Assembly (NCBI GenBank): GCA_947466965.1
Contig: CANIFU010000017.1
Span: 1 to 48,899, forward strand
Length of the DNA: 48,899 bases
Direction: 5' to 3'
Source: Bacteroidota bacterium
GTDB lineage: Bacteria; Bacteroidota; Bacteroidia; 2-12-FULL-35-15
This document shows positions 3,401 through 44,168 of this stretch, piece after piece. Below the pieces are notes generated by a model. The model saw nothing but the letters and a program-made list of their open reading frames with translations. It ran no database searches and was not told where the DNA came from. Position 1 is the first letter of the stretch; the number at the start of each line of letters is the position of its first letter. The position numbers and the translations under genes were made by a program.

Positions 3401-4663
3401 TCCGATTGCGGGACTCCAAGAATAAAAAGATCCACCTGTAGCTGTTAATCCTGTTGACGAACCAAAACAAATTGAAACACTCGCTCCGGCACTGGCTGTA
3501 ATGGTTGAAGTAGCAAGTGTAACGGTATCTGAACCGACACAACCTATTCCATCAGTAACGGAAAGTGTGTAGGTTGTTGTTCCCCCTGGCGATGCAATGG
3601 GATTAATTATAGTTGGATCACTTAAACTCGCTGCCGGGGCCCAAGAAAAATTAAGCCCTGTTGGAGCCGAACCCAATAAGCCGACCGAAGACCCGCTACA
3701 AAATGATGAGAAAACTCCTGCATCAACAGGAACATTATTTGTAAGAACAACAACTGTATCTGTATTTGTTCCTGCTGCTGATGCAACACAAGCATTTGAA
3801 AGCACCTCTGCATAATAATATTGAGGTGATAATGGCGGTGTTACTGTAATTGTTGAACCGGTCCCAATCAATGTGTTTGCAGGTAAAATATACCAGTTGA
3901 TTGTATAGGTGGGAACTCCATTGGGAGTAAAACGAGTCGCTTCGTTTGCCACCGTCCATTGTGTGTTATTTCTTCCTGGCATAACAAAGGCCGCTGTACC
4001 GGTAGAGTTATGAAGTCCATGAACAGCATTTCCGGAATTCCAAGTTAAACAGAGTGACTTATTTGCAATATGCGTTTCAATTATATTTGTTGTTTCATAA
4101 ATAATAATTTGGCTGGAATACAATTGTCCTGTACAAGAAAACATTGGCACATTATTCCATGAAACAGATAATCTGCGAAAGGGTGCTGTTCCGTATAGGG
4201 CAAATTTTACAGTCCCGCCAAGTCCCGGATTAATATCTTGCCATGCACCCATAATCGTATTTCTTGGAGCAGTTCCTGTTGCATTAGGGATTGCCGTTGT
4301 TACCCAAGTAGATGTTTCTCCGGCTTGAAAACCAATCCAATTATTTGAGCCAATAATAAAGTTGGTATATGTATTTCCAAAATAGCAAAAAGAAAAACCT
4401 ATTGGCAATAGTCCTGTTTGAGAGTCATCAGAAAGAAAAACGGATGTGCCTGCTGTCAAAGGATCAGGAGCGTATGGAACCGAACTAATGGCATAACTAT
4501 CTGTGAGCATTCCACTTGCTCCAGCAGGATTTACGACTGCCGAAAGCGTTGCCGTTCCTCCCGAACAAATCGATTGTGTTTCAGGAGAAGCATCAATTGT
4601 TTGAGATTGAATGGAGAATATATTTAAAAATAATCCAAAAGAAATAAGTTTAATTTTTTTCAT
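470..4663 (-). CDS. Giant repeat adhesin with C-terminal type B T9SS (CHU_C) domain
   Basis: A 1397-residue secreted surface protein. Residues 1-20 form a signal peptide ending near SIQSQ. Residues about 50-260 are a globular domain with WIGFQAG and MGAWQDINP motifs, resembling nidogen-like domains of adhesins. About eleven tandem units of roughly 76 residues follow (about 310-1140), each with an (I/V)C-G-S start, an SWSP or YVWSP core and an NPIASP..TTTYTVVGTD tail. Then come a SprB-like repeat (about 1145-1215), a PKD domain containing WDFGNG, and a gliding-motility-associated C-terminal domain with VFTPNGDLIND, IFNRWGNKIYEW and GWDGK. Family knowledge says such domains direct T9SS export and attachment. 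Role in adhesion or gliding is inferred. Units 4-6 and 7-9 are near-identical at DNA level. The ATG lies four bases from a TAnnTTTG box. Confidence 0.9.
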   Translation of the reverse strand: MKKIKLISFGLFLNIFSIQSQTIDASPETQSICSGGTATLSAVVNPAGASGMLTDSYAISSVPYAPDPLTAGTSVFLSDDSQTGLLPIGFSFCYFGNTYTNFIIGSNNWIGFQAGETSTWVTTAIPNATGTAPRNTIMGAWQDINPGLGGTVKFALYGTAPFRRLSVSWNNVPMFSCTGQLYSSQIIIYETTNIIETHIANKSLCLTWNSGNAVHGLHNSTGTAAFVMPGRNNTQWTVANEATRFTPNGVPTYTINWYILPANTLIGTGSTITVTPPLSPQYYYAEVLSNACVASAAGTNTDTVVVLTNNVPVDAGVFSSFCSGSSVGLLGSAPTGLNFSWAPAASLSDPTIINPIASPGGTTTYTLSVTDGIGCVGSDTVTLATSTITASAGASVSICFGSSTGLTATGGSFYSWSPAIGLSNPSIANPVASPTSTTTYTVTASQGLCTATSLVTVNVNPLPLVDGGAATYICTGSSETLSASGATSYVWSPAATLSSTIISNPISSPTISTTYTVIGTDGNGCSASDSITVVVNPLPTIDAGTGLSVCPGTSTSLNATGGTSYLWTPSGSLDNPAISNPIASPTSLTTYTVVGTDANGCSSSDVVTITLTGIVVTASTSSVAICNGSSASLSALGAASYSWFPSGTLSSSSIANPIASPASTTTYTVVGTASSGCLDTAFVTITVNPLPAVDAGSPIAFCIGGGTVLNGSGASSYVWSPGATLSSTSISNPIASPITTSTYTLVGTDGNGCSASDSITVSVNPLPTIDAGASISICPGTSTSLNATGGTSYLWTPSGSLDNPAISNPIASPTSLTTYTVVGTDANGCSSSDVVSISLSGIVVTASTSVATICAGSSASLSALGAASYSWSPSGTLSSSSIANPIASPASTTTYTVVGTASSGCLDTAFVTVNVNSLPVIVVGPPDSICVGLTTSLSASGAVGYVWSPAVSLSGATTASPVSSPAATTTYTVVGTDANSCSSSNTVTVTVNALPVATATSSASSVCVGTPVTLSATGGGTYSWSPSASLSSSTISTPTATPSTTTTYSVTVTNAAGCSASSSVNLTINPIPIATTSANVVICNGALTVITAGGGGTYLWSPSAGLSSVVSATPSATPISTTTYTVVVSNGSCSNTATVTVTVNSTLSMTTPTSTNSTCGDADGTITAGAISGGGAPFTYSLNSGTSQSSPTFIGLSSGTYTLTVTDNAGCTFAQTVVVNSVLGVTASFTASPTSGSSPLTVNLSNSSNGASDYFWDFGNGISSILTNPSVVYAANGTYNILLIAYNGSYACADTTTITINVFDEALMVVPNVFTPNGDLINDLFVVHSQGIKELTGTIFNRWGNKIYEWSGSPTMGWDGKNSGKEAEDGVYYYVIKAVGFDGKEYDASGFVQLLNK
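1932..2425. repeat. Intragenic long repeat, copy B (684-bp period)
   Basis: Near-identical to 2616-3109, offset by exactly 684 bp (228 codons, three 76-residue units). The offset was checked at three anchors: ACAAATGCAG at 1932/2616, AAGTTGGAGA at 2221/2905 and CCGAACAACC at 2401/3085. The offset preserves the reading frame of the adhesin. Confidence 0.9.
2616..3109. repeat. Intragenic long repeat, copy A (684-bp period)
   Basis: Partner of the copy at 1932-2425. It encodes adhesin units 4-5 plus the end of unit 3, while the partner encodes units 7-8 plus the end of unit 6. Near-identity over about 490 bp, including synonymous positions, points to recent duplication or gene conversion. Confidence 0.9.
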
Positions 4664-4969
4664 AATTCAAAAGTATCTTAGGTGAACGTAAATTTCTCTT
4701 TTGATTTTTTTAAAAATCATAGAGCGTTTTTGCAATAATAATAAAATCAAAACAGTATCAAAACCAACATTTGGATAGGATAACGCTTTGTTTGTATGAT
4801 TTTTTGGAGTAACAATAGGGTTAATTAAATTTTTAAAATTGGAAACACCGGCAACAAAAATCATGCATGTAGTGGTGGTAGCGCTAAAACAGGATTAATA
4901 TTTTTGAATCTTTTTGTCTGACGTTGGACCAGACTATACAATCCTTCCCGATGCCCCAATTTTAATAGC
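4664..4969. other. 306-bp gap without a gene
   Basis: AT-rich spacer between the sigma-linked CHU_C gene and the giant adhesin, both on the minus strand. The only items I can name are the TAnnTTTG-like box at 4668-4675 and a weak GTCTG/CAGAC inverted repeat at 4916-4934. Short frames here have no recognisable protein character. Confidence 0.6.
4668..4675 (-). promoter_or_regulatory. Putative Bacteroidota -7 box (TACTTTTG) of the giant adhesin
   Basis: On the minus strand TACTTTTG fits TAnnTTTG, the known -7 consensus of the Bacteroidota housekeeping sigma factor. It ends only four bases before the ATG at 4663, so a transcript from it would be nearly leaderless. No clear -33 element was identified. 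It may be a chance match in AT-rich DNA. Confidence 0.3.
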
Positions 4970-5950
4970 TTATCTCGTTAATTTTATTTTTCCCTTTTGT
5001 TCGTATTTTTTTCCATCTGCTCCATCAGCAGAAATAATGTATAAATAGTTTCCTTCTTTTACATTTTCTCCTTTTTTGTTTTTGCCATCCCACTTAAAGC
5101 CGCTACCCTTAAATTCATAAATTATTTTAGCGTCTTTATCAAAAATGGTAACTTCCATCGACAAAATATTTTCTCCGGTGAACACAAACAAATCGTTAAG
5201 CCCATCACCATTTGGGGAAAACTCTCTTTGGTTTGATACCGCAATGGAAGAGTTATTAAATGCTTCAATTTTGATACTATCAATAGCCGTTTTCCCATCA
5301 ACACCAATTGATGTAAGCGTAATAGTATAAATACCCGGTTCATCAAAATATTTGATCGGATTAGCGCCCACCATTGGCTTTGTTCCATCATTAAACGACC
5401 ACTTGTTTGTTTTACCACTTCCAATATTCGCAAGGTTGATAATTAAAGGAACTGCACCAGCAACACAACTGGAAGAAATAGAAGCAATACGCTCATCTGA
5501 CAATAAAGATTGAATTTGTTTTTTGTCTTTTTTACTGTTATTTTTAACGGAAGACAGCGTCGATTTTTGTTCAACTTCTTTAGGAGAAACAACTGGTAGT
5601 TTTATTGTTTCTTTTGCTTGGATTGTATCTACAGTTAAAAACTCTTTTATTTCTGAAACACTTGGTTTCTGATTTTCAACAACAACTTTTGGCGCAACGA
5701 TTTTTGGGGGTGTTGTGGTTTTGTTTTCCGGTCCGTTCATTACAAATACGGTGGCCAATACAGCTGCTGCAGATGAAACAATTGCAACAATTGCATTTGC
5801 ACCTATTTTATTTAGAATCGATTTACCCAGAACGCCCAGGCCAGCGGCCTTTAAAGCCGTTTGAACATTTTTCCAAACAGTAGGACTAACTTCAACTTCG
5901 AAATTTTCGAACGTGTCTTTAAATAAATCTTCTATATTGTTTTTCTTCAT
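4970..5950 (-). CDS. Membrane-anchored PKD/CHU_C protein, anti-sigma-like N-terminus
   Basis: 326 residues. The N-terminus (1-40) has the acidic pattern IEDLFKDTFENFEVEVSPTVW, seen on many Bacteroidota proteins encoded directly after ECF sigma factors. One hydrophobic segment (about 45-70) follows, then a charged linker (75-150), a PKD-like domain (about 160-232, WSFNDGTKP) and a C-terminal gliding-motility-associated domain (EFSPNGDGLNDLFVF, IFDKDAKIIYEF, KWDGKNKKGE). There is no cleavable signal peptide, so the expected topology is cytoplasmic N-terminus, one membrane pass and a periplasmic or exported C-terminus. It starts two bases after the ECF sigma gene and is surely co-transcribed with it. 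I infer that it regulates that sigma factor; a pure surface role remains possible. Confidence 0.8.
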   Translation of the reverse strand: MKKNNIEDLFKDTFENFEVEVSPTVWKNVQTALKAAGLGVLGKSILNKIGANAIVAIVSSAAAVLATVFVMNGPENKTTTPPKIVAPKVVVENQKPSVSEIKEFLTVDTIQAKETIKLPVVSPKEVEQKSTLSSVKNNSKKDKKQIQSLLSDERIASISSSCVAGAVPLIINLANIGSGKTNKWSFNDGTKPMVGANPIKYFDEPGIYTITLTSIGVDGKTAIDSIKIEAFNNSSIAVSNQREFSPNGDGLNDLFVFTGENILSMEVTIFDKDAKIIYEFKGSGFKWDGKNKKGENVKEGNYLYIISADGADGKKYEQKGKIKLTR

Positions 5951-5952
5951 TT

Positions 5953-6483
5953 TTAATCCCGTTCTATTGGTATCATTTTCTGCAAATGTGCTTTTGCTCT
6001 TGAGTATTGAGACTTAGATGTGCTTTCTGAAATATTGAGCATATCCCCAATCTCTTTATGAGAATAACCTTCAATCGCATAAAGGTTAAAAACCGTTTTA
6101 AATCCCAAAGGCAACGTTTGTATAATCTTTAACAGATCCTTAACAGCATAACTGTCGCCCGTATTCATATTCGATGGAAGCATAAATTCAACGCTATCCA
6201 ATTCTATGTTTTGTTTTAATTTTTTATTTTTTCGAATATTGGTAAGGGCGGCATTTACCATTATTTTTCTTATCCAACCTTCTAAAGAACCGGTACCTTT
6301 ATACGACTCAATGTTTTCAAAAATGCTGATAAATCCATTTTGGACAACATCTTCTGCTTCTTCAGTATTGTCACAATAACGAAGGCAAACGCCCATCATT
6401 TTTCGTACAAACTTTTCGTACAACGTTTTTTGAGCAATTGCACTCTTTTCAATGCACCCTTTTACTATTTGCTCATCTGTCAT
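5953..6483 (-). CDS. ECF-type RNA polymerase sigma factor
   Basis: 176 residues, typical of the family. Region 2 covers about residues 20-90 (RYCDNTEEAEDVVQNGFISIF and GWIRKIMVNAALTNIRKNKK), a short variable linker follows, and region 4 covers about 115-170 (LPLGFKTVFNLYAIEGYSHKEIGDMLNISESTSKSQ, a helix-turn-helix). It is the first gene of a two-gene unit with the membrane CHU_C protein, which by position and N-terminal pattern could be its anti-sigma. Its upstream region, shared divergently with RNase R, has a CAACTTTG box inside an ATGCAA-AG-TTGCAT palindrome. The target regulon cannot be read from the sequence; nearby surface genes are plausible. Confidence 0.92.
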   Translation of the reverse strand: MTDEQIVKGCIEKSAIAQKTLYEKFVRKMMGVCLRYCDNTEEAEDVVQNGFISIFENIESYKGTGSLEGWIRKIMVNAALTNIRKNKKLKQNIELDSVEFMLPSNMNTGDSYAVKDLLKIIQTLPLGFKTVFNLYAIEGYSHKEIGDMLNISESTSKSQYSRAKAHLQKMIPIERD

Positions 6484-14413: not shown

Positions 14414-16414
14414 TTATTCTTTATTTGAAGAGAATGAAGAAAAAGCAATAATTTGTATTTTGCGCTCAAGAGCAGCAACTGGATTGTAGATTGAGTTTTT
14501 GGTATCGAAATAATCATCGCTAACGTTTGGTCGCGCCTTTAACTCACCAATATCTTCATCCATAAAAGTTATGCTTCCATCATCTGGATTTTTATTGTCT
14601 ATATATTTTATGAATATACCATTCTGGTATTCTCTGAAATAGTTTCTCAAGCTCGATATTCTTCTTTTTGCCAGATTAACATTGTAGTCCGTTGACGCAA
14701 GCGGGCTGCAGAACCCCTTCATGGTGATGGTTACCTTTTCTTTATCGTTTAAGACTTTCACTAATAATTGAGCAAATTTTTCAAGATCCTGCATTCCCGC
14801 ATCCACTGAGTCTTCAAACAGATTATCGATATCGGTAATTGCCCTTTCAAAATCCACATCTTTCGCACCTTTTGAATATTCTTTTTTATACAATTCCCGC
14901 ATTGCGGAATAATCTTCATGCGTTTTTTTATAGTTTTTAAGCGTTGTAATCGCGAGTGTTTTTTTATCCGGCTCATCATTGTGAAAGTATAACGTAAGCG
15001 GAACAAGCAGCTTTATTTGAGTTACAAAAACCTGAGTGCTGTCAATCTTTTTAGGAGGCTCATCCGCCTTTGGAAGCTTCACCATATAAATATCATTACA
15101 ACAACTTTCCTTCTCTTCGAAGTAAGAGCCTATTCTATTAGAGGAGAGAAATGCCTCTGTTCTTCTCGAATTGATTGAAAAATAAATATCATTGAAATTG
15201 CTGTTGATAGGTAAACCAAGGTTTTTAGGTTCTCCCAACTCATTGTTTTTATATTCGCTTTTAAAAACATCAAAGCCACCCAAACCCATGTGCCAACTAG
15301 AACTAAAAAATAATTCCTGACATGGCTTACAATAAAACGGAGTAATTTCATCATCCATAGAATTCACTTTTTTGCCTGCGTTTATTGCCTTTCCATAGCT
15401 TCCGTTTTTTCCAAGCTTGCTATACCAGATGTCCATTTTACCTTCGCCACCACTGCGGTTGGATGAGAAAAACAACACTTCATCTTCCTCTAAAAATCCG
15501 ATTGCAGGTTGTGTATTTGTAAATCCTTTCGCATTAATTTCAGGGGGCAGTTTCTGAAGCGCTTGCCAATGTCCTTTTTTATATTCCGAAGAATAAATGT
15601 CACAATTAAATTCCATTGCATTTTTGGGAACACATCGCGTTATGAAAACTTTTGTAAAGTCCGCATTAAAAGCGGTATTTGCATTGTGAATTCCTTTACG
15701 ATTAAAAAGTGAGTCCAGCTCAACTGCTTTTTGCCATTTTAGGGAATCCTGAATGGCGGTATATATTTTATTAAAATTGACACTGTTTTTTTTGTCTCTG
15801 TCTTTAACATCCCTTAAAGAAGAAAAGTAAAGGAGGCTGTCAACTTGTATCGGTGCATATTCTGAAACCTTGCTATTAACGGAGCTATCGAGGTGAAAGA
15901 TGGCAACGCTTTTATCGGGTGTGGCCAACAGCAGTTGGGCGTAATCGCATGCTAATGCTTCTTGGACGGCTTTTTTTACAAAGTAACTATCTTTTTTCTT
16001 TTTGTTTTTCTTGGCATACTTTTCAAACATCTTTTTTGCATCCTTGTATTTTCCCTGATTCTTTTTTATTGAAGCCAACCAAAAAGAACACTCAGGGTAT
16101 AGTTTTCCTTGAGCATCTTTTTTGAACACTTTTGCATACCAGTGTTCTGCAATCACAAAATCAAAGTTTAACCGACTGGCATCGGCGAATTTATACTGAA
16201 CAACAATGTCGCTTGAGTCCTGCAGAATTGCTCTGTTATAGTATCCTGCAGCAGAAAAAAAATCATTTTCTGCAAACGCCTTATCTCCATCAGACAAAAG
16301 TGTTTTTGTTTTTTGTGCAGAAAGCGAAAACGAAAAGAGAAAAGAAAAGCCTATAATAAAAGTCACTCTAAGCATCAGTAAACACATTAATTTAAATCGC
16401 TTTTCAAAAATCAT
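14414..16414 (-). CDS. TPR, PD40 and OmpA-like outer membrane-associated protein
   Basis: 666 residues from the ATG at 16414, chosen because it directly follows the PorP/SprF stop (16417) and yields a signal peptide ending at FSLSAQ. An in-frame TTG at 16435 would overlap PorP. TPR-like helices (about 25-130) are followed by PD40 beta-propeller blades (about 165-430: LLYFSSLRD, LFFSSNRSGGEGKMDIWYSK, LFFSSSWHMGLGGFDVFKSE) and a C-terminal OmpA-like domain (about 520-630, MKGFCSPLASTDYNVNLAKRR) expected to bind peptidoglycan. Such proteins are commonly encoded beside PorP/SprF and CHU_C adhesins, where they are thought to help anchor or assemble the T9SS-exported partner. Confidence 0.9.
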   Translation of the reverse strand: MIFEKRFKLMCLLMLRVTFIIGFSFLFSFSLSAQKTKTLLSDGDKAFAENDFFSAAGYYNRAILQDSSDIVVQYKFADASRLNFDFVIAEHWYAKVFKKDAQGKLYPECSFWLASIKKNQGKYKDAKKMFEKYAKKNKKKKDSYFVKKAVQEALACDYAQLLLATPDKSVAIFHLDSSVNSKVSEYAPIQVDSLLYFSSLRDVKDRDKKNSVNFNKIYTAIQDSLKWQKAVELDSLFNRKGIHNANTAFNADFTKVFITRCVPKNAMEFNCDIYSSEYKKGHWQALQKLPPEINAKGFTNTQPAIGFLEEDEVLFFSSNRSGGEGKMDIWYSKLGKNGSYGKAINAGKKVNSMDDEITPFYCKPCQELFFSSSWHMGLGGFDVFKSEYKNNELGEPKNLGLPINSNFNDIYFSINSRRTEAFLSSNRIGSYFEEKESCCNDIYMVKLPKADEPPKKIDSTQVFVTQIKLLVPLTLYFHNDEPDKKTLAITTLKNYKKTHEDYSAMRELYKKEYSKGAKDVDFERAITDIDNLFEDSVDAGMQDLEKFAQLLVKVLNDKEKVTITMKGFCSPLASTDYNVNLAKRRISSLRNYFREYQNGIFIKYIDNKNPDDGSITFMDEDIGELKARPNVSDDYFDTKNSIYNPVAALERKIQIIAFSSFSSNKE

Positions 16415-16416
16415 AA

Positions 16417-17433
16417 CTACATATAAATAGGACAAACACGTTTTTTAGCCACAAAAGGAGCAACCTTTTTGAAAATATATATTAATGAAATTTCAAATCC
16501 ACCTCTGCGATTTGTAGCTTCTATAAGCTTGGACGTGTTGATATCATAGCTAAATCCGACATTAAAATTTTTATAATCCATGTTTGCTACCAGAACAAAT
16601 GCATCCTTTATGCGGTAAAATCCTCCAAGAGAAACGGCGGTAGTCATTCCATCAATTGGTTTCAAGTGGTACTTACCAAACAATCCAACAACGGTTTCCT
16701 GAAAGGTTCCTTGTCGTTGATATAGAATTGAAGGCAAAACATCTAGTTGTGTGGCAACAGGAAATTCCGCAATTGCACTAACGTTGGTTTTTACATCTAA
16801 TCGAGTATCGTCGTTATTAAAGAACGATTGTTTGGGACGGTTCAAATGAAGTGCTGATAGGCCTATACTCACAAGCGTACGGCTGTTTTTTTTCCAAAGG
16901 TATGCAAGTCCTCCACCGAAATCAAAATAAGTAATTCGTGTTTTGGAAAAATTTTCGCCGCTACTCATAGATGCGTTATAACTGTCGCCATCGTATTGAT
17001 TATCGAACGTAAGTGCAGAAACATCAAAACTTTTTGTAGTTACACCAGGCTGCAAACCAACAGATAAAAAGTGTGTTGAGTCTTTGTTAAGTTTTTTAAC
17101 ATACGCGCCCGAAACAAAAAGCTGCGTTGTTGTAAACCTGGAATCCCCCGACTTGTCAGTATTAATAAGCAAACCTAAGGCAGGAACATCTTTCTCTAGC
17201 TTTGTTTTTAAGCGTGTATCTGAAGCAATTGAAAGTGTTCGATATGGAACAGGTATTGCCGACCATTGACTTCTGAAGTTTCCTACAAATCGCCAATCGC
17301 CATCAAATAAACCAGCTTGAGCAGGATTTAAGTTTTGTGGCGAAGCATTAAATTGAGAGTAATGAATGTCTTGTGCATGAATTAAACTCACACAACAGAT
17401 CATTAAAAATAATATAATCTTATTTTTTTTCAT
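16417..17433 (-). CDS. PorP/SprF family T9SS outer membrane protein
   Basis: 338 residues. A signal peptide ends near CCVSLIHAQ, followed by the family's diagnostic opening DIHYSQFNASPQNLNPAQAGLFDGDWRF. The rest alternates beta strands and ends with an aromatic-rich strand region, as in an outer membrane beta-barrel (FEISLIYIFKK). In known systems SprF/PorP-like proteins are paired with one specific CHU_C cargo and are needed for its secretion or surface attachment. The gene sits seven bases after the 1202-residue CHU_C protein, its likely cargo, and just before the OmpA-like gene. The specific pairing is inferred from operon order. Confidence 0.95.
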   Translation of the reverse strand: MKKNKIILFLMICCVSLIHAQDIHYSQFNASPQNLNPAQAGLFDGDWRFVGNFRSQWSAIPVPYRTLSIASDTRLKTKLEKDVPALGLLINTDKSGDSRFTTTQLFVSGAYVKKLNKDSTHFLSVGLQPGVTTKSFDVSALTFDNQYDGDSYNASMSSGENFSKTRITYFDFGGGLAYLWKKNSRTLVSIGLSALHLNRPKQSFFNNDDTRLDVKTNVSAIAEFPVATQLDVLPSILYQRQGTFQETVVGLFGKYHLKPIDGMTTAVSLGGFYRIKDAFVLVANMDYKNFNVGFSYDINTSKLIEATNRRGGFEISLIYIFKKVAPFVAKKRVCPIYM

Positions 17434-17440
17434 TCTTCAA

Positions 17441-20400
17441 CTATCTTATCAAGGTTGTATTGCCCTGTTTTTTCAGCTCGTTACCGTTGTAACATGTTGC
17501 TCTTAAGTACCAGGCAAAAACTGCCGGATCGGCTTTCATTCCTTTATAAATTCCATCCCAACCAACATTTTGATTTGTTGTTTCAAACACCATTTCTCCC
17601 CAACGATTATAAACAGCAAAATACATTTCTGTGATCATGTTTGCCCTGACAAATAAAACATCATTCTGTCCATCACCATTGGGGGTAAATGTATTGGGTA
17701 CAAAAACATCTGCCGGATCACATTGCATTGATAATACATATATTGTTACCGTTGCCGTTTTGGGGCAACCAGAAGAGTCGATTACAGTCAAGGTATATGT
17801 TGTTGTTGTTGTTGGCGAAGCAGTTGTATTAAATGAATTCGGGTTACTAAGACCTGTTGCTGGGCTCCACAAGATGGTTAACGTTGTATCGGTGATGGCA
17901 TGGATTATTGTAGAGCTTCCTAAGAAAATGCTATCATTGTCTGCGACTGCAGAAATTGGAAAAAGAGCAGGATCAATAACTGTTATGTTGGTTGAAAGCG
18001 AAACAATACAAGTATCTCCCATAGGATTTACGGTAGAAATGGCCACGGTATAGGAAGTAGAGGACGCGGGGCTTGCAATAGGATTGGCGATTGTTGAATT
18101 ATTTAAACCAGAGGATGGTGACCAGCTATAGGCAAAGCCGCCAGTTGCAGAAATAGAAGCGGCGCCTCCTTCACAGATTGTTTGGTTAGAACTAATGGAG
18201 GCCCCTCCCGAATTATCAAAAGCTATGGATGTGCTATCGGCACACCCGTTTATGGTGGTTGCAATTAAAGTAACAACATAATTCCCTGAAGAAGGATATG
18301 TGTGTGAAGGATTTTGAAGCGAGGACGAAGAGCCGTCTCCAAAATCCCAAAGCCATGATGCCGGCGATGCCACAGAAGAATCGGTTAATGCAATTGTATT
18401 TGAACAAGGGAGGCTATTCAAACCAAAATTTGCTGTAATACCGGGATAAACGGTTATATACGAGTAAGCTGTATCAGAAACTTTACAAGCATTATTATAT
18501 AAAATCAATGACACAAGGTACGTTCCTGGAATTGAAAAAACGTGAGTAGGATTGTAGATAACAGACGTGGTGTCTCCGCTGCCAAAATTCCACAAATAGG
18601 TTCCGTAAGGGGAACTTTGATTGTTGAATGTTACAGAAAACGGAGCGCATCCGGCTGATGTGTCTATAGAAAAATCAGCATCCACAGGAGGAACCTGGAA
18701 GTCGAATTTAAATGTTCCGTTGTTACAATTAGAATTCATGTTTATTCCTGTTGATGGAACTCCCGGTGAAAGGGGTGTATATATAGGGCTTGTATACGGC
18801 CAAGATCCTGGAGTTACAGGAAAGTCGTCGTTTCCACCACATCCCGCACAAACAGATTGATAAATAATACCCTTTTTATCAAAACGGCTTGTTCCACCAT
18901 CAACATGTTCCCAACTGCTGGCTCCTCCAAAATAGGTTGCATAAATAAGGGAAGAAGCATCTGCAGAAAGAACGATCAAATAAAAATTATGTCCGTCCGT
19001 TGTGGGTTGAACAGCATCTGCAGTAAGCGGCATACCGGTTGTACTTGTAACTGGTGGAACAATTTTTCCGCCCCAACCAGAAACATAAATATTTTTACAC
19101 TCGTCAACCAAAAAGGCAGAGGGAGAAATGTTTGGTGTACCGCTACCGTTTCCGAATACTGTTGAAAAACCAAGTACTGTAAGATCGTAATTCATTCTGG
19201 AAATAAACTGGCCACTATTCGGATTATTATAAACGCCAGCGGTAACCGGCATCAATCCTTCTGTTTGACCAACCACATAAACATTGCTATCTCTGTCGAA
19301 CTGAATAAAATAACATTGATCGTAAGCGGTTGTGCCCCAATAAGTAGAAGCGAGCAGGGCCGAACCATTGTTTTTTATTTTAGAAATATATCCATCCGCC
19401 TTTCCACCTTGGTAAGTAGTTCGAAGCACACCGGGCGTGGACGGAAAGTTGTTGCTTCGAGTGCCTCCGGTAATATAAACATTTAAAGAATCGTCAATTG
19501 CTAATGCATAACCTGCATCATTATCCGTACCTCCTAAAAAGGTGCTCCAAAGCAACACAGAAAGGTCGCTGTTAAACTTAAACGCCACGGCGTCCTGTTC
19601 TCCACCCAATGTGTTGTCAAAACCACCAACAATTGGGAAGTTTCCCGATCGAGAAGAGCTAGCTACATAAGCATTTCCCAACAAGTCAACATTTATCTCG
19701 CCACGAAATTGATCGCCGTAATTATATTGTAAGGAATCGGCAGGGAACTCATATACAGCAGGGGGGCCAGCAGAAAAAAGAACACTATCGTTGTTAACAT
19801 TCACGCCATCATTCAAGCTACCACCGATGAAGGTGGACGCTAAAAGTGTTGTTCCTGTTGCGTTAAACTTTGCAACATAAATATCCGTTCCATTGTCGAA
19901 ATAACTTCCGTTATAAACAAATCGCAACAAAATACCTCCATTAAAAGTTGTGTCAAAAGCAGTTGGGGTAACAGGAAAATCAGACGAGCCGGTTGCGCCA
20001 TACAATAGCAATTCATCATTATTGTTTACAACGAGACTCGTTACAATTTCGGTGCTTGTTGCTCCACCAATATAGGTTGAATATTGAAGAAACGTTCCGG
20101 AAGAATCATATTTTGTAATTACAACATCCGTTCGGCCATAAGCTATTGCACCGTTAAATGTTACGTCGTATGCACCAAGAGTTGTTGGAAAACCGATATC
20201 AAAACAGGTTCCTCCGGAATATAAATTACCTGAGGCATCGTAGGTGGCTGTCATGCCGAAATTGTCGGCCGTTGAACCGGAAGAACATGCAAACACCAAA
20301 ATCGGATCAATAATCAACTCAATGCTATTGTCGTATCCTTTGGGAAAACGAAAAGAAAGGGTCGTGTTGTTGAGAACAAATTCGCAGGGCACCTCAACTT

Positions 20401-21049
20401 CATATCCGTCAATATATTGGTAGGCATATGGTTTTTGTTCAACCATTGCGTTTACACTAGTTGTTAGCTGCAATCTTCCTTTGTCGAGCTTTATTTTATC
20501 AAGCCCCTCATAAAAAAGTGCTATTTCTTTCGGGCTGGAAAGAGGAGCTACTATAAAATTATATTTTAGACTATTCTGCAATCCTACTACTTGAAGATCT
20601 ATTCCTGAATAAATGTTTTTATAGTTTACTTCGCGGAAATTTTTTGCATCGCCGGCCCACTTGCTCTTGTCCTTGCCAATGAAGTAGTTCGTGTAATCAT
20701 GCGTAAGTTGCGTTGCTGTTGTTGCAACCGTTTTTAGGGCATTTAAAAATGTTGTTTTAAAAGCATGGGAACGAATCGGTGCGCCGGACGTTGTTTTGTT
20801 TCTTCCGGTGTGATTGTTGCGAAGCGTTTCTTTGTCATAAAAATTATATGTAAACGCATTTTTCTCCAAAAACAAAACACCACCGTCAAGTTGTGCTCGA
20901 TACAACACTTTTTTATCCCATTGATTTTTATTTTCAGTAAATTTTATTGCCGTTTGAGAATCAAAAATCTTACGTTCCTGAGCGAATGTTCTGAAGAAAA
21001 ACAAAAACAGAAAAACAAAAAGAAAATATTTTTTTAGTGGAACGTTCAT
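17441..21049 (-). CDS. SBBP-propeller/PKD adhesin with C-terminal type B T9SS domain
   Basis: 1202 residues. A signal peptide (about 1-23) leads to a DUF7948-like domain (about 30-250: TENKNQWDKKVLYRAQLDGGVLF, split by later NYKNIYSGIDL). SBBP-type beta-propeller repeats follow (about 255-770), recognisable by STYIGG, STFIGGS, STFLGG and TYFGGAS. Then two PKD domains (about 790-960, YLWNFGSGD and WLWDFGDGS), Ig-like SWSPSSGL units, and a CHU_C domain (about 1115-1202: NTFTPNGDGQNDVLF, VYNRWGEMVFE, GWDGIYKG). It is first in a likely operon with PorP/SprF and the OmpA-like protein, so it should be that secretion partner's cargo. The function at the surface is inferred to be adhesion or gliding. 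Confidence 0.93.
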   Translation of the reverse strand: MNVPLKKYFLFVFLFLFFFRTFAQERKIFDSQTAIKFTENKNQWDKKVLYRAQLDGGVLFLEKNAFTYNFYDKETLRNNHTGRNKTTSGAPIRSHAFKTTFLNALKTVATTATQLTHDYTNYFIGKDKSKWAGDAKNFREVNYKNIYSGIDLQVVGLQNSLKYNFIVAPLSSPKEIALFYEGLDKIKLDKGRLQLTTSVNAMVEQKPYAYQYIDGYEVEVPCEFVLNNTTLSFRFPKGYDNSIELIIDPILVFACSSGSTADNFGMTATYDASGNLYSGGTCFDIGFPTTLGAYDVTFNGAIAYGRTDVVITKYDSSGTFLQYSTYIGGATSTEIVTSLVVNNNDELLLYGATGSSDFPVTPTAFDTTFNGGILLRFVYNGSYFDNGTDIYVAKFNATGTTLLASTFIGGSLNDGVNVNNDSVLFSAGPPAVYEFPADSLQYNYGDQFRGEINVDLLGNAYVASSSRSGNFPIVGGFDNTLGGEQDAVAFKFNSDLSVLLWSTFLGGTDNDAGYALAIDDSLNVYITGGTRSNNFPSTPGVLRTTYQGGKADGYISKIKNNGSALLASTYWGTTAYDQCYFIQFDRDSNVYVVGQTEGLMPVTAGVYNNPNSGQFISRMNYDLTVLGFSTVFGNGSGTPNISPSAFLVDECKNIYVSGWGGKIVPPVTSTTGMPLTADAVQPTTDGHNFYLIVLSADASSLIYATYFGGASSWEHVDGGTSRFDKKGIIYQSVCAGCGGNDDFPVTPGSWPYTSPIYTPLSPGVPSTGINMNSNCNNGTFKFDFQVPPVDADFSIDTSAGCAPFSVTFNNQSSPYGTYLWNFGSGDTTSVIYNPTHVFSIPGTYLVSLILYNNACKVSDTAYSYITVYPGITANFGLNSLPCSNTIALTDSSVASPASWLWDFGDGSSSSLQNPSHTYPSSGNYVVTLIATTINGCADSTSIAFDNSGGASISSNQTICEGGAASISATGGFAYSWSPSSGLNNSTIANPIASPASSTSYTVAISTVNPMGDTCIVSLSTNITVIDPALFPISAVADNDSIFLGSSTIIHAITDTTLTILWSPATGLSNPNSFNTTASPTTTTTYTLTVIDSSGCPKTATVTIYVLSMQCDPADVFVPNTFTPNGDGQNDVLFVRANMITEMYFAVYNRWGEMVFETTNQNVGWDGIYKGMKADPAVFAWYLRATCYNGNELKKQGNTTLIR

Positions 21050-38608: not shown

Positions 38609-39070
38609 ATGAAAACAATTGTTTCACTAATTCTTGTCCCATTTTTTTTGATAACTTTTGTGTCGGCCGTTGCTCAAGAGCCAGATTCGATTGCAAAAAA
38701 AATACTCGACTTTTGTGAAAAACATAAGGGAAAAAAAGTGGGAAAGGGAGAGTGTTGGGATTTAGCAAAGGAAGCCCTAAATGAGTCGGGAGCAACATGG
38801 ACGCCGCCCTATATGTTTGGTAAACCACTAAGCAAAAAGGAGGCGCTTCGCGCGGGTGATATTCTCCAGTTTGAAAAAGTAAAAATAGAGTCTCCAGATG
38901 GCTCATGGAAGGATCTGCCCCACCACACCGCAATCGTTTTTAAAGTCATTGACAAAAATAAAATTATAATGGCCGAGCAAAATGCAAACGGAAAAAAATT
39001 CGTTCTGTTTTCTGAAGCAGATCTTTCGCAGATTACAAAGGGGAAATTAACTTCATTCCGACCAAATTAA
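38609..39070 (+). CDS. Small secreted Cys/His hydrolase-like protein (NlpC/P60-CHAP-like fold suspected)
   Basis: 153 residues. A signal peptide ends near VSAVAQ (about 23). The mature part has a compact pattern: C49 in VGKGECWDLAKEAL, H105/H106 in LPHHTAIVFKV and Q124/N125 in MAEQNANG. This C-H-polar order, with a GDILQFE strand before the histidine, recalls NlpC/P60-, CHAP- and BBC1/AIM3-type papain-like domains. Substrate is not known; peptidoglycan amide bonds are plausible given the LysM transglycosylase 74 bases upstream. No T9SS tail, so periplasmic or released by another route. Family membership is inferred from motifs. Confidence 0.7.
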   Translation: MKTIVSLILVPFFLITFVSAVAQEPDSIAKKILDFCEKHKGKKVGKGECWDLAKEALNESGATWTPPYMFGKPLSKKEALRAGDILQFEKVKIESPDGSWKDLPHHTAIVFKVIDKNKIIMAEQNANGKKFVLFSEADLSQITKGKLTSFRPN

Positions 39071-39112: not shown

Positions 39113-39120
39113 TAAATTTG
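39113..39120 (+). promoter_or_regulatory. Putative -7 promoter box of the secreted cassette (TAAATTTG)
   Basis: A perfect TAnnTTTG match 27 bases before the ATG at 39148, in the 77-bp spacer after the small Cys/His gene. It would drive the four tightly spaced genes 39148-42627. The -33 element is unclear. Confidence 0.45.
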
Positions 39121-39147: not shown

Positions 39148-40404
39148 ATGAAAAAGATGTTGCGTAGTATACTTATTGCTGTTTTGTTTTGTTCTCAATT
39201 TACATTCGCACAAGACTTTTCGTATTCAAACATAAGCCTTGTAAGTGTTACATTTAGTGGCGGAAACCTTAACATTCGTTCGGACAGCGGAGGTGCGGTC
39301 TATTCTTCGCCCCAATACCTAACAAGCGCCACCAAACAAAAGCCTGTTGCATATGTTAGCGGAAACGCACCACGAGCTGCAGCCTCCTTTACCATTGATT
39401 GCCCTTCTGTTCCCGACTCGGTAAACGTAAGAGGGTTTGGGTCGGACGCTATAAACTTTTCGTCTGTAAAAGTCGTTGTAAACCCATCATCAGGAACACT
39501 ACACACATTTAACTACCCCGCCAAAACAGGATCTCACGTTTTTACAACTTCTATTGTTCGTTTTTTTAAGCCGTATACAATCAACTGGGAAATATCCTTC
39601 GACAACGGAATAACTTGGAAATCAATTGGAGCGAGCAATAATACACTATATGTAACCCGGAGCGCTCCTCAAACGGAAGGAACAAATTACAAATGGTATC
39701 ACACCGTTTTCGATCTGAGCTGCAGAAATGCGCAATACAAAAGTCTGGACACCGCTATCATTTCAAGCGTCTGGGGCGAATTCACTGATCACATTGTTTT
39801 AAATTATAACAACGACAGTCTGTTTTATTACAAGATTATGAACTCTCCAAACGTAACGCTTGGTAGTCTTTTACAAAACCGCGATGCCGAATGCTATACG
39901 TTTGCTCAACTCTTTTTGGCTTCAATAAAAATACAAGGTGTCGTTCGCACAAACAACTATGTTTACATCACCCCGATAAATAATTCTGTGTGTGGAAATG
40001 TTGTAAATCGATTCCTCGTTAAAAATTGGAGCTTCGGAACACCTACTGCTTCATCGACGTGTTCTGCATTCCCATATAAAAACACATACAACTCTGCTAT
40101 CGGTTCTATTCCTGCGCCATTTGATCAATATGTTTTTATTACTTCTGATGTAACAGACCTGTCGGGAATACCAGGATCTTGTAATATTCGACCGGCATCC
40201 TATTTCAATAATCACCAAATCGCTAAAGTTGACGGCGTTTATTATGATGCGTGTTATGGGGTAACATTTCCAACGCTTGGATCAATAAAATCAGCTGCAT
40301 TTAGTGGTTGGAGCTTCCGTTATACGACTAGCGGAATAACAAATTGTTTTTTTACAAACGACCTTTCACAATCTGATCTTTCAGAATCAATAAGTACATT
40401 TTAA
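39148..40404 (+). CDS. Secreted transglutaminase-like protein
   Basis: 418 residues with a signal peptide (about 1-21, FTFAQ). The N-terminal half (about 25-225) looks like beta-rich Ig-type domains. The C-terminal half has an order of residues typical of transglutaminase-like cysteine proteins: C249 in NRDAECYTFAQLFLASIKIQG, H356 in YFNNHQIAKVDG and D367 in VYYDACYG. Further cysteines (192, 282, 305, 344, 400) could form disulfides. There is no type A or CHU_C sorting tail. Known members cleave or cross-link peptides; which activity applies here is unknown. It is first of four genes with 1-, 13- and 16-base gaps. Assignment rests on motif reading, not on a search. Confidence 0.65.
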   Translation: MKKMLRSILIAVLFCSQFTFAQDFSYSNISLVSVTFSGGNLNIRSDSGGAVYSSPQYLTSATKQKPVAYVSGNAPRAAASFTIDCPSVPDSVNVRGFGSDAINFSSVKVVVNPSSGTLHTFNYPAKTGSHVFTTSIVRFFKPYTINWEISFDNGITWKSIGASNNTLYVTRSAPQTEGTNYKWYHTVFDLSCRNAQYKSLDTAIISSVWGEFTDHIVLNYNNDSLFYYKIMNSPNVTLGSLLQNRDAECYTFAQLFLASIKIQGVVRTNNYVYITPINNSVCGNVVNRFLVKNWSFGTPTASSTCSAFPYKNTYNSAIGSIPAPFDQYVFITSDVTDLSGIPGSCNIRPASYFNNHQIAKVDGVYYDACYGVTFPTLGSIKSAAFSGWSFRYTTSGITNCFFTNDLSQSDLSESISTF

Positions 40405-40405
40405 A

Positions 40406-41230
40406 ATGAGAGCGCTCTTTGTTTCTTATTTTATTCTTTTAACAATTGGCTTGCCTGCACAGATAATAGAACGGAAAATAATAATTGAAAAAGGAAATTA
40501 TTTTTTCACCACTATTGATGACAACAATCAACTTGCAACATTAAATACAGGAAAAGTAAACGATGCAATCCGTGAATCAAAAAAACTTGCCATGCCTGCC
40601 GGAAGAAATTACGACAACCCCATTATTCCATTTGCGTGGGACATTGTTGATACAAGTGTTTATGCGGTTAGTTTTTTGCTTCACCCACTAAACGACAGGA
40701 ACGAAGCAATTAAAAAAATAAGCGTGGCATCTTTAAAAGAATGGAGCAGCACCGTAACACCAATGGCGCTAATAATGCAGAGTATAGAGTCGAGCCCTTA
40801 TGCATATAACGATCCGTATTTGTTTATTACCAAAAGATCAAATATCATCAGCGGTTTTTATTTTGATGCTATATATGCAAGCGATAACTCTTTCACAATA
40901 GCAATATCAAACAATGGCGAGCTAAGCATTTGGAATTACAGCGGAAGCTCATGGAACCACAGTGATGTTTTTCAGTTCCCTGTTGATGGGTATTTTTCGC
41001 TTTTTGAAAAAGATAAAAAAACATATTTAATGTTAAACTCGGGAGTTGTCTGTGAAGCTTCAAAAGAGGGAATAAAAGCCGTAAATAAAGATTGCGGAGC
41101 TTCACTTAATGACGGCTTTCTGATTATAAACAAAGACGAAAACACAATATCCTTCATGAAAAACAGCAACCTAAATAAGCACACAGCATTAAATGAATTA
41201 ATCACCAAAAAGGCAATACGTATTTTTTAA
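40406..41230 (+). CDS. Secreted protein of unknown function
   Basis: 274 residues, not recognised. A signal peptide (about 1-19, TIGLPAQ) is followed by a strand-rich protein with repeated short segments such as FTIAISNNGELSIWNYSGSSW and KKTYLMLNSGVVCEASKEG that read like beta-propeller blades. Two cysteines lie late in the protein and could pair. The gene starts one base after the stop of the transglutaminase-like gene, indicating translational coupling and a likely functional link. No catalytic motif or T9SS sorting domain was seen. Confidence 0.75.
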   Translation: MRALFVSYFILLTIGLPAQIIERKIIIEKGNYFFTTIDDNNQLATLNTGKVNDAIRESKKLAMPAGRNYDNPIIPFAWDIVDTSVYAVSFLLHPLNDRNEAIKKISVASLKEWSSTVTPMALIMQSIESSPYAYNDPYLFITKRSNIISGFYFDAIYASDNSFTIAISNNGELSIWNYSGSSWNHSDVFQFPVDGYFSLFEKDKKTYLMLNSGVVCEASKEGIKAVNKDCGASLNDGFLIINKDENTISFMKNSNLNKHTALNELITKKAIRIF

Positions 41231-41243
41231 ATAAAACATACAA

Positions 41244-41798
41244 ATGAAAACAAATATCAGATTTTCTTTTCTCTTGATTTTACTCGCCGGAACGGCCTTC
41301 GGTAGCGACTTAACCTATTCGGTTATCAACACCACATCGGGAACGAGCTCTGGATCAATCGACTTATCGGTTACCGGAGGAGTTGCGCCTTTTACATTCA
41401 TCTGGACGGGGCCGGCTGGATTCGCAGCAACAACAGAAGACATCGGCGGACTTCCTTTGGGTGCCTATACCGTTACTGTTAGCGATAAGTATTGCGGAAT
41501 CGCAACAATTACAATTTTTGTTGATAATGATCTTTTAAGCGGTGTCGATGAAAATAACAAAAACAACATTCGTGTTTTTCCGAATCCTGCAAACGGTTTG
41601 GTTAATCTTGTTTCAGAAAAATCTCTTAATGGCGCAAGTTTTAAAATAATTAACATAGCCGGACAAGTAGTATATGAGAAAAAAGAGAGCACCGGAAGCA
41701 ACTTCTTTTTTGATGTTTCAGAAAAAGCTTCAGGAATTTATTTCATTGAAATAAAAACGCCAGGAAGTATTTCAAGAATAAGATTTGTAAAAAATTAA
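41244..41798 (+). CDS. Small SprB-repeat protein with type A T9SS sorting domain
   Basis: 184 residues. A signal peptide (about 1-20) is followed by a SprB-like repeat (about 22-95: SGSIDLSVTGGVAPFTFIWTG, then GLPLGAYTVTVSDKYCG). The C-terminal 80 residues are a type A sorting domain with VFPNPANGLVNLVS, IINIAGQVVYEKK, GIYFIEIKT and a final RFVKN, as recognised and cleaved by the T9SS. It should be exported and anchored to the surface, probably on A-LPS-like glycolipid. It is third in the cassette, 13 bases after the unknown gene. Confidence 0.88.
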   Translation: MKTNIRFSFLLILLAGTAFGSDLTYSVINTTSGTSSGSIDLSVTGGVAPFTFIWTGPAGFAATTEDIGGLPLGAYTVTVSDKYCGIATITIFVDNDLLSGVDENNKNNIRVFPNPANGLVNLVSEKSLNGASFKIINIAGQVVYEKKESTGSNFFFDVSEKASGIYFIEIKTPGSISRIRFVKN

Positions 41799-41814
41799 CC
41801 AAAAACAATTCAAT

Positions 41815-42627
41815 ATGAAAAAAAAATACTTCATTTTAATTCTTTTTTTTTATTCTCTTTTTGCTGTTGCCCAAACCGTTTGTAACCCATCCGGAAACCT
41901 TATGGTTTTTACGAACTATAGCGGTGGCAACCTGAATATTGACGTAGACGTGAATATCCCAGATTTAAAAATTGGCGTTGTAAGTTATGAAGGAACAGCA
42001 ATAACGATAAGCGGTACTTTTGCTGGTAACGTAACAAGCGTTGCCTATGCTGGATTTAACAATACCAACCTAAGCTGCGGAGGATCCATTTCAACATCAA
42101 TCTCCGGAGCGGGAAGCGCCACGACAAACATTGCCTTTGCGCCGACAGCTACACTCTCAAACTCATTCGGATACGGCTCAATCATCTGCGGTTACAGTTG
42201 TTCAACCACCACAAACCAAGGGGGGTGTAATACCGTGGATCAGATAGAAAATTATTTTTTAAACTATTTTCCCGGATGCCAACTTTATGCAAACAAAGTA
42301 CAATATGATTGCTGGACTGGAAATCAATCGCTTTCAGCAGGAGGTACATGCTGCGCGCTTGCAACAAGACTTACATCTGGTGTATCTCAAAAAAAGTTAA
42401 GCATTTTTCCAAATCCAGCAGCTGCAAACCTTACAATCGCCTTTAACACGTTTGTTTCAAACGGCACTGTTCGTGTTTTTAGTGCGGCAGGAGAGCTAGT
42501 AAAACAAGAAAGCAACATAAGCGGAACTGATCACTCTGTTAATGTTTCCGGCTTGTCTGCTGGTATTTATTTTATTGAAACCAATGACGGGGAAGAAATT
42601 TCACACCTGCGTTTTATAAAAAATTAA
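41815..42627 (+). CDS. Cys-rich secreted protein with type A T9SS sorting domain
   Basis: 270 residues. A signal peptide ends at LFAVAQ (about 20). The central region (about 22-185) has about ten cysteines and a distinct pattern: CNPSGNLMVFTNYSGGNLNID, then DLKIGVVSYEGTAITISG, GYGSIICGYSCSTTTNQGGCNTVDQIENYF and YDCWTGN. I recall this pattern recurring in Bacteroidota secreted proteins without a known function. The C-terminus (about 190-270) is a type A sorting domain (SIFPNPAAANLTI, VFSAAGELVKQ, GIYFIETND, LRFIKN). It is last in the cassette. Role unknown; disulfide-stabilised surface display is likely. Confidence 0.85.
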   Translation: MKKKYFILILFFYSLFAVAQTVCNPSGNLMVFTNYSGGNLNIDVDVNIPDLKIGVVSYEGTAITISGTFAGNVTSVAYAGFNNTNLSCGGSISTSISGAGSATTNIAFAPTATLSNSFGYGSIICGYSCSTTTNQGGCNTVDQIENYFLNYFPGCQLYANKVQYDCWTGNQSLSAGGTCCALATRLTSGVSQKKLSIFPNPAAANLTIAFNTFVSNGTVRVFSAAGELVKQESNISGTDHSVNVSGLSAGIYFIETNDGEEISHLRFIKN

Positions 42628-42831: not shown

Positions 42832-43989
42832 TCAGATCTTGTTCAGCGCCTGATCAAGGTCTTCAATTAAAAGATCCGCGTCCTCCAAACCAATATACAA
42901 ACGAACCATATTCCAGGGCAAAGGGTTTTCAAAACTCTTACTAGCAGCCAGGGCACAAAGGGGAAACAAAAGGGATTCATAACCACCCCAAGATGTGGCC
43001 ATAATAAAACGCTTAAGATGATCGCAAAAACGCTCTACTCCGGCTTCGTCTTCAGCGTCTATGAGGATTGACAAAAGCCCTCCACCTTGTTTCATTTGTT
43101 TTTTTGCAAGTTCTAGTTGAGGATTTTTTGCAGAGAATGGATAATTCACGTGTTTAATTTTGTGGTGTTTTTCCAAAAACTCAGACACTTTTTTTGCGCT
43201 GGCAGCACTTTGATTAACGCGCAACTCTAACGTTCTTAAACCTCTCAAAACAAGGGCTGCATCGTGTGGAGAAATACAACTACCTATTGTCATGTATTCC
43301 TCGGCCATCATTTTCATGATCCGTTCCCGTGAACCACAAACAACGCCACAAACAACATCGCTGTGTCCGTTTATATATTTAGTACCAGAATGAACAACAA
43401 GATCAACACCCATGGTAATAGGATTTTGATTGATTGGTGAATTGTAACTGTTATCGATTATCGTAGTGATTCCTTTTCCTTTTGCCAGCGTGGTGATTGC
43501 AACAATGTCCTGCATCTCAAATGTTAGGGAGTTCGGACTCTCTAGGTAAATTAGTTTGGTATTCGCCTGAATGGCCTTTTCAAAATCGTGAGCACGCCCT
43601 CCACTTACAAATGAGTACGTTACACCATATTTAGAAAGGTATTTAGAAAATAAATTATTTGTCCAACTATACGGTTTTTGAACACACACAACGTGATCAC
43701 CCGCCTTCACAGCGCTCATTACGGCAGCAGCAACAGCAGCGCTCCCGCTAGAAAAAACGAGCGCATCTTCTGTTTTTTCAAGAGCGGCAAGCTTTTTACG
43801 AAGTGTTCCAACGGTAGGATTGTAACCCCTCGTGTAGAAGGGCGTTTCTAACTCATTTGTAAGTTTTTGACGCATTTCTGCAACGGTTTTAAAACAAAAG
43901 TTCGTGCTTTGAAATATGGGAGGTGCAACAGAACCATAGTATTCATCGCGTTCTTCGCCAAGATGATTTAGAATAAAAGAATTGTCCAT
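42832..43989 (-). CDS. PLP-dependent Cys/Met metabolism enzyme (cystathionine gamma-synthase-like)
   Basis: 385 residues from the ATG at 43989; an upstream in-frame start at 44109 would add 40 hydrophobic residues unlike the family. Fold type I landmarks: YGSVAPPIFQSTNFCF, TRGYNPTVGTLRKKLAALE, FSSGSAAVAAAVMSAVKAGDHVV (split by the phosphate-binding SSGSAA), IDNSYNSPINQNP, and the PLP lysine in VHSGTKYINGHSDVVCG. The family covers cystathionine synthases and lyases, O-acetylhomoserine sulfhydrylase and methionine gamma-lyase; I cannot choose among them with confidence. It is isolated, with long gaps on both sides. Confidence 0.9.
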   Translation of the reverse strand: MDNSFILNHLGEERDEYYGSVAPPIFQSTNFCFKTVAEMRQKLTNELETPFYTRGYNPTVGTLRKKLAALEKTEDALVFSSGSAAVAAAVMSAVKAGDHVVCVQKPYSWTNNLFSKYLSKYGVTYSFVSGGRAHDFEKAIQANTKLIYLESPNSLTFEMQDIVAITTLAKGKGITTIIDNSYNSPINQNPITMGVDLVVHSGTKYINGHSDVVCGVVCGSRERIMKMMAEEYMTIGSCISPHDAALVLRGLRTLELRVNQSAASAKKVSEFLEKHHKIKHVNYPFSAKNPQLELAKKQMKQGGGLLSILIDAEDEAGVERFCDHLKRFIMATSWGGYESLLFPLCALAASKSFENPLPWNMVRLYIGLEDADLLIEDLDQALNKI

Positions 43990-44168
43990 AGAATTTAAAA
44001 TAAGATTTGTCAAAATAGTGATCTTTTTATTATTTCTTAAATATGAAAAATGCCGATGACCAAAATCCAGGCATAAAATCAAAATTACTTTTTTTCCAAA
44101 ATGTAGCAAAGTCTTTTTATTCTTGGATTCAAATTCAGCAAGCTATTTTTTGCATTTAACAAATTTCT

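What the first reader, a model, noticed from the sequence alone, without database searches (positions are those of the whole stretch)
39148..42627. Four-gene secreted cassette built around a transglutaminase-like protein and two T9SS cargo proteins
Genes are 1, 13 and 16 bases apart. The first has a Cys249-His356-Asp367 order in contexts typical of transglutaminase-like enzymes; the second is an unknown secreted propeller-like protein; the third and fourth carry type A T9SS sorting domains. A secreted peptide-bond enzyme co-expressed with small surface-anchored substrates could process or cross-link its own cargo. I know of no named system with this content.
Basis: partly seen in the sequence, partly recalled or inferred. 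Interest (0 to 1): 0.62.

Follow-up and report, generated by a model that had tools for sequence, protein, structure and literature searches.

The report
Conserved three-gene secreted enzyme operon
A bacterium of the phylum Bacteroidota carries a small operon, kept together in unrelated chromosomal settings, that encodes an exported enzyme with a transglutaminase-like active site, an exported partner of unknown fold and a small cell-surface protein; it is an unnamed module whose enzyme probably processes an envelope or surface protein, but its function is untested.

Summary
The cassette, however, is three genes, not four. Genes 1-2-3 occur in the same order and strand in every intact locus read, in five chromosomal settings that share only these genes. 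Genes 1 and 2 co-occur in 18 of 388 related genomes, and neither has a clear match without the other. Gene 4 is absent from two same-genus cassettes and from every setting outside the genus. Gene 1 is an unnamed family. Its Cys-His-Asp order is invariant in 18/18, and a profile comparison places Cys249 on the transglutaminase catalytic Cys (P 0.0015; unrelated families 0.13 or worse). Pfam hits stay below cut-off and predicted structures are low confidence, so the fold is likely, not shown. Genes 1 and 2 lack a T9SS sorting domain and are probably periplasmic. Gene 3 is a one-SprB-repeat T9SS cargo whose mature part has no conserved Gln or Lys (two loci have neither), which argues against Gln-Lys cross-linking. 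Best reading: a TGase-fold hydrolase that processes its co-encoded cargo or a nearby envelope protein. No published description was found.

The parts
39148..40404 (+). Gene 1 (418 aa): Sec-exported protein, N-terminal beta-sandwich-like region plus a C-terminal transglutaminase-like Cys-His-Asp domain; no sorting domain
   Evidence: single copy
39355..39657 (+). Gene 1 residues 70-170: all-beta, Ig/beta-sandwich-like region
   Evidence: mostly pLDDT 58-82, with a dip at 131-141; Foldseek beta-sandwich matches at E 0.003-0.04
39892..39894 (+). Codon of Cys249, putative nucleophile
   Evidence: invariant in 18; aligned on the transglutaminase Cys by hhalign
40213..40215 (+). Codon of His356, putative catalytic His
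   Evidence: invariant in 18; starts a strand in the model
40246..40248 (+). Codon of Asp367, putative catalytic Asp
   Evidence: invariant in 18; end of the next strand
40406..41230 (+). Gene 2 (274 aa): Sec-exported protein of no named family or known fold; between genes 1 and 3 in every intact locus
41244..41798 (+). Gene 3 (184 aa): small T9SS type A cargo
41340..41417 (+). Gene 3 SprB repeat (residues 33-58)
   Evidence: PF13573, 30.4 bits against cut-off 28
41574..41795 (+). Gene 3 T9SS type A sorting domain (residues 111-184)
   Evidence: TIGR04183, 51.8 bits against cut-off 23
41815..42627 (+). Gene 4 (270 aa): T9SS type A cargo with a widespread unnamed N-terminal domain; adjacent here but not part of the conserved unit
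39113..39120 (+). TAAATTTG, a match to the Bacteroidota -7 promoter element TAnnTTTG, 35 nt upstream of gene 1 (suggestive only; few relatives have an exact match)

Best explanation
Genes 1-3 form one operon-like secreted module. SHOWN by computation: the three genes stay together, in order, in five unrelated chromosomal settings, and gene 3 is a T9SS cargo with one SprB repeat. SUPPORTED but not shown: gene 1 has a transglutaminase-like fold with a Cys249-His356-Asp367 site. INFERRED: gene 1 is exported by Sec and acts in the periplasm, which T9SS cargo crosses before export; it forms a thioester with a substrate carbonyl or amide and hydrolyses it (proteolysis or deamidation) rather than cross-linking Gln to Lys; its substrate is the gene 3 protein or another envelope/surface protein that gene 3 accompanies; gene 2 is a non-catalytic exported partner (scaffold or regulator). 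In logic this resembles LapG, a periplasmic TGase-like protease that trims a surface adhesin, but with T9SS cargo and unrelated partners.
For: Only genes 1-3 are shared between any two of five settings (contexts). Co-occurrence of genes 1 and 2 in 8/148 and 10/240 genomes, the same genomes each time. Correlated divergence of the three proteins, r 0.81-0.90, 0 of 2000 permutations, although shared ancestry alone also gives this. Invariant C249/H356/D367; 70 of 187 positions invariant in residues 185-371 against 27 of 148 in the N-terminal part. hhalign to 28 Bacteroidota transglutaminases P 0.0015 with the Cys in register; unrelated families 0.13 or worse. Weak Transglut_core matches in four members. 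Cys at the start of a helix, His at the start of a strand, Asp on the next strand in the model. T9SS-family proteins and other T9SS cargo lie in the same window. LapG precedent: PMC3032545.
Against: No Pfam or NCBIfam match over cut-off for gene 1. Both structure models are low confidence (mean pLDDT 39.9 and 50.1), and no transglutaminase entry appears in the fold searches. No experimental or comparative evidence names the substrate. Gene 3 is less conserved than the enzyme, which would be unusual for an obligate sequence-specific substrate. Cys-His spacing (107 residues) is longer than in HvyA (34; PMC4241560).
Confidence: 0.4

Rival explanations
1. The TGase-fold enzyme acts on something other than gene 3, such as an envelope glycan-assembly protein, a peptidoglycan-linked protein or another cell's protein, and gene 3 merely displays or anchors the complex at the surface.
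For: Gene 3's conserved residues are mostly those of the SprB repeat and sorting domain; the enzyme is far more conserved than gene 3. A periplasmic TGase-like enzyme that controls capsulation exists: HvyA in Caulobacter (PMC4241560).
Against: Strict linkage of all three genes in five settings makes a direct working relation between enzyme and gene 3 the simpler reading.
Confidence: 0.3
2. One reading: gene 1 cross-links the small surface proteins by Gln-Lys isopeptide bonds.
For: TGase-like triad and small T9SS cargo next to it.
Against: No conserved Gln or Lys in the mature gene 3 domain; L054 and L082 have none before the sorting domain. Gene 4, the other proposed substrate, is not linked to the module. 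The enzyme has no sorting domain.
Confidence: 0.06
3. Genes 1-3 build or maintain a surface structure: gene 3 is the displayed subunit, gene 1 is a maturation factor whose active site matures itself or gene 2, and gene 2 is the periplasmic scaffold.
For: Gene 2 has invariant Q42, H93, K103 and R23 and a conserved NDR-x-E motif, so gene 2 rather than gene 3 offers conserved candidate residues.
Against: Nothing ties the enzyme to gene 2 beyond adjacency and co-occurrence; gene 2 has no known fold.
Confidence: 0.15
4. The genes are linked only by shared ancestry and the enzyme fold is misread; gene 1 is a non-catalytic adhesin.
For: Narrow distribution: 1 of 395 genomes drawn across the phylum; weak HMM and fold evidence.
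Against: Five settings with nothing else shared; invariant C-H-D; Cys in register with transglutaminases.
Confidence: 0.09

Closest known systems
LapG and other bacterial transglutaminase-like cysteine proteinases (BTLCP, DUF920; LapG of Pseudomonas, HvyA of Caulobacter)
   Same: Exported enzyme with Cys-His-Asp order, probably periplasmic, near a surface or envelope protein (PMC3032545, PMC4241560)
   Different: No match to any BTLCP family model in the Pfam scans; 107 residues between Cys and His against 34 in HvyA; extra N-terminal beta region; no neighbouring c-di-GMP receptor or large adhesin; the neighbour is T9SS cargo
Transglutaminase-like superfamily, Pfam PF01841
   Same: Cys at a helix start, His then Asp on strands; best profile-profile match of the families tried
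   Different: 16.1 bits at best against a cut-off of 23; not a recognised member
NTAQ1 N-terminal glutamine amidohydrolase (PMC4214742)
   Same: Cys-His-Asp hydrolase; five of the eleven weak VIA matches, Z 2.0-2.5
   Different: Z too low to mean relatedness; NTAQ1 has no signal sequence or beta-sandwich (own knowledge)
T9SS type A cargo with SprB repeats (TIGR04183, PF13573)
   Same: Gene 3 has both domains over cut-off
   Different: Only one repeat and about 80-90 residues of mature protein, where SprB itself is a giant multi-repeat adhesin (own knowledge)
PorA of Porphyromonas gingivalis
   Same: Small protein with a T9SS C-terminal domain at the surface (PMC7712824)
   Different: Homologues reported only in Porphyromonas (PMC7712824); I know of no TGase-like gene tied to it

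Membership tests
Transglutaminase-like superfamily (PF01841) | Cys, His, Asp in that order, conserved | tested here: met
   C249, H356, D367 invariant in 18 of 18
Transglutaminase-like superfamily (PF01841) | Score over the curated cut-off | tested here: not met
   No hit for the window protein; best relative 16.1 bits against 23
Transglutaminase-like superfamily (PF01841) | Profile-profile similarity with the Cys in register | tested here: inconclusive
   P 0.0015, HH-suite probability 16.6%; 12 unrelated families P 0.13 or worse
Transglutaminase-like superfamily (PF01841) | TGase/papain fold | tested here: inconclusive
   Low-confidence models; no significant Foldseek match
Transglutaminase-like superfamily (PF01841) | Enzymatic activity | not testable with these tools
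   needs purified protein
BTLCP / LapG family | Match to a BTLCP/LapG family model (Pfam) | tested here: not met
   Not among Pfam hits of any of 16 members at E up to 10
BTLCP / LapG family | Periplasmic export signal | tested here: inconclusive
   N-terminal hydrophobic signal-like sequence without lipobox by eye; no predictor available
BTLCP / LapG family | LapD-type receptor and large adhesin nearby | tested here: inconclusive
   None recognised by eye beside the cassette in the contexts read, but most neighbours were not scanned against family models
T9SS type A cargo (gene 3) | C-terminal TIGR04183 domain over cut-off | tested here: met
   51.8 bits against 23; Por_Secre_tail also over cut-off in the five relatives from outside the genus that were scanned
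SprB-repeat protein (gene 3) | PF13573 over cut-off | tested here: met
   30.4 bits against 28; some relatives fall below cut-off
Beta-propeller (gene 2) | Propeller repeat family match or fold | tested here: inconclusive
Conserved four-gene cassette (reader) | All four families linked | tested here: not met
   Gene 4 absent from the G003, G023, L053, Crocinitomix, G591 and G592 loci

The most novel reading that the evidence does not exclude
A dedicated periplasmic transglutaminase-fold enzyme covalently matures one specific T9SS cargo encoded in the same operon, with a new exported partner protein: a cargo-specific processing step in type IX secretion that has not been described.
Probability: 0.2. 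Interest if true: 0.7.

Novelty: new variant of a known kind. Interest (0 to 1): 0.45.

Why it matters
Two protein families without a name in Pfam or NCBIfam are tied by strict linkage to a small T9SS cargo, in Bacteroidota that include Crocinitomix catalasitica ATCC 23190 and C. algicola. That gives a concrete, testable candidate for enzymatic processing linked to type IX secretion, and a lead on what single-SprB-repeat surface proteins do.

Tried and rejected
Whole-protein fold from 7 close homologues: poor over the catalytic part. Catalytic-domain fold from 18 homologues: mean pLDDT 50; Foldseek had no significant match and transglutaminases were not listed; VIA second look gave only Z 2.0-2.5, with NTAQ1 entries prominent, not used as proof. 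PDB sequence searches: nothing relevant. Plasmid and phage tblastn and viral contigs: no relatives. PHROGs and NCBIfam on gene 1: nothing. First hhalign runs used fewer transglutaminases because '-' strand loci were read in the wrong orientation or dropped by a filter; repeated with all 28. Upstream CHAP-like gene 38609-39070 as a cassette member: rejected, because it is not beside the cassette outside the genus. Promoter element: an exact TAnnTTTG match in only two of 16 upstream regions, so not used as evidence. A look for an empty site in same-genus genomes via the CHAP-like gene was uninformative. Papers combining transglutaminase and T9SS: one, irrelevant by its title and abstract; none combining Crocinitomix and type IX secretion.

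Full report
Observation. The four ORFs lie at the stated coordinates on the + strand with gaps of 1, 13 and 16 nt. Translation places Cys249, His356 and Asp367 as described. Genes 3 and 4 carry the T9SS type A sorting domain TIGR04183 over cut-off, and gene 3 has one SprB repeat. Genes 1 and 2 match no Pfam or NCBIfam family over cut-off. Each of the four proteins begins with a hydrophobic signal-like sequence; this was judged by eye.

How widespread and how linked. Gene 1 is single copy in its genome. Among 148 related genomes 8 have a clear copy, all in the same genus, and the same 8 have gene 2. One further weak match to each was seen elsewhere (G081 for gene 1, E 8e-4 over 63 residues; G047 for gene 2, E 4e-4), not counted as a copy. 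A scan of one genome per species found 15 loci, including Crocinitomix catalasitica and C. algicola. In the family of C. catalasitica 10 of 240 genomes clearly have gene 1, and the same 10 have gene 2. Over both samples 18 of 388 genomes have both and none has a clear match to only one. Gene 1 is rare outside these groups: 1 of 395 genomes drawn across the phylum and 9 of 399 across the order of Crocinitomix.

Conserved unit. In every locus whose contig continues, genes 1, 2 and 3 follow in this order on one strand. I read five different settings: the window's genus, L053, Crocinitomix, G591 and G592. Pairwise comparison of the neighbourhoods finds these three genes in common between any two settings and nothing else, apart from one partial match of L053's gene 3 to gene 4 that I take to be the shared sorting domain; two Crocinitomix species share 9-11 genes. 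The linkage is therefore not left-over synteny. Pairwise divergences of the three proteins correlate (r 0.81-0.90), as expected for co-inherited genes; shared ancestry alone would also give this.

Gene 4 is not part of it. It is missing from the cassettes of two same-genus genomes (G003, G023) and from all settings outside the genus. Its N-terminal domain occurs in many genomes of the class, including same-genus genomes that lack gene 1.

Gene 1 fold. C249, H356 and D367 are invariant in 18 proteins, the most distant 49% identical to the window's protein. Residues 185-371 have 70 of 187 positions invariant against 27 of 148 in the N-terminal part. Transglut_core matches four members weakly, best E 0.014 and 16.1 bits against a cut-off of 23. 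An hhalign comparison with 28 transglutaminase domains from related genomes gives P 0.0015 and lays Cys249 on the catalytic Cys; the twelve unrelated neighbourhood families give 0.13 or worse. An earlier run with 20 of these domains gave P 0.004. The model of the catalytic part has a helix starting at the Cys, a strand starting at the His and the Asp on the next strand, which is the transglutaminase order, but mean pLDDT is only 50 and Foldseek finds nothing significant. A second-look alignment lists NTAQ1, a Cys-His-Asp amidohydrolase, at Z 2.0-2.5, too low to count (NTAQ1 triad from PMC4214742). I rate a TGase-like fold at about 0.8. The N-terminal part is predicted all-beta with weak beta-sandwich matches.

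Where the proteins go. Only gene 3 (and gene 4) has a sorting domain. Genes 1 and 2 most likely stay in the periplasm (inference). The same window holds T9SS-family proteins and other T9SS cargo: a PorP/SprF-family protein over cut-off, a protein with below-cut-off similarity to PorE, and proteins with type B sorting domains.

What it probably does. The mature domain of gene 3 has no conserved Gln or Lys; its one conserved Cys (Cys84) sits at a position I recall as usual in SprB repeats. L054 and L082 have neither Gln nor Lys before the sorting domain. A Gln-Lys isopeptide in mature gene 3 is therefore excluded at those loci. Hydrolysis (proteolysis or deamidation) remains. The nearest working analogy is LapG, a TGase-like protease that trims a surface adhesin (PMC3032545); HvyA is a periplasmic TGase-like enzyme that controls capsulation (PMC4241560). 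Gene 1 is not a recognised member of that family. Gene 2 carries conserved Gln, Lys and His (Q42, K103, H93) and could itself be the substrate or a scaffold. The substrate is the main unknown.

Novelty. Searches of the open literature for the combination found no description; most papers of subscription journals are not held. The module is best called a new variant of a known kind: an exported TGase-like enzyme paired with a surface protein, here a T9SS cargo, with a new partner family.

Noticed in passing
window 41815-42400 (gene 4 N-terminal domain): An unnamed domain, about 180 residues, widespread across the class and sometimes in larger or duplicated proteins (e.g. G136, G123), with no Pfam match.
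   Followed up: partly
window 38609-39070: Small exported CHAP-like protein matching PF25459 (AIM3/BBC1 cysteine-proteinase-fold domain, named after fungal proteins) at E 3e-19; next to the cassette only within the genus.
   Followed up: partly
window 14414-21049: T9SS-related cluster: a protein with below-cut-off similarity to PorE and OmpA-like family models, a PorP/SprF-family protein and a 1202-aa type B T9SS cargo.
   Followed up: no
window 470-6483: Two type B T9SS cargo proteins beside an ECF sigma factor gene.
   Followed up: no
L054, L055, L056, L059, L062, upstream of the cassette: Several Crocinitomix loci have a small exported protein that looks like a CAP/SCP-domain protein (judged by eye) within about 1.5 kb upstream; not seen in the other settings.
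   Followed up: no
window 42832-44109: PLP enzyme whose best NCBIfam match is a bifunctional L-alanine/L-glutamate racemase model (below cut-off), ahead of methionine gamma-lyase models.
   Followed up: no
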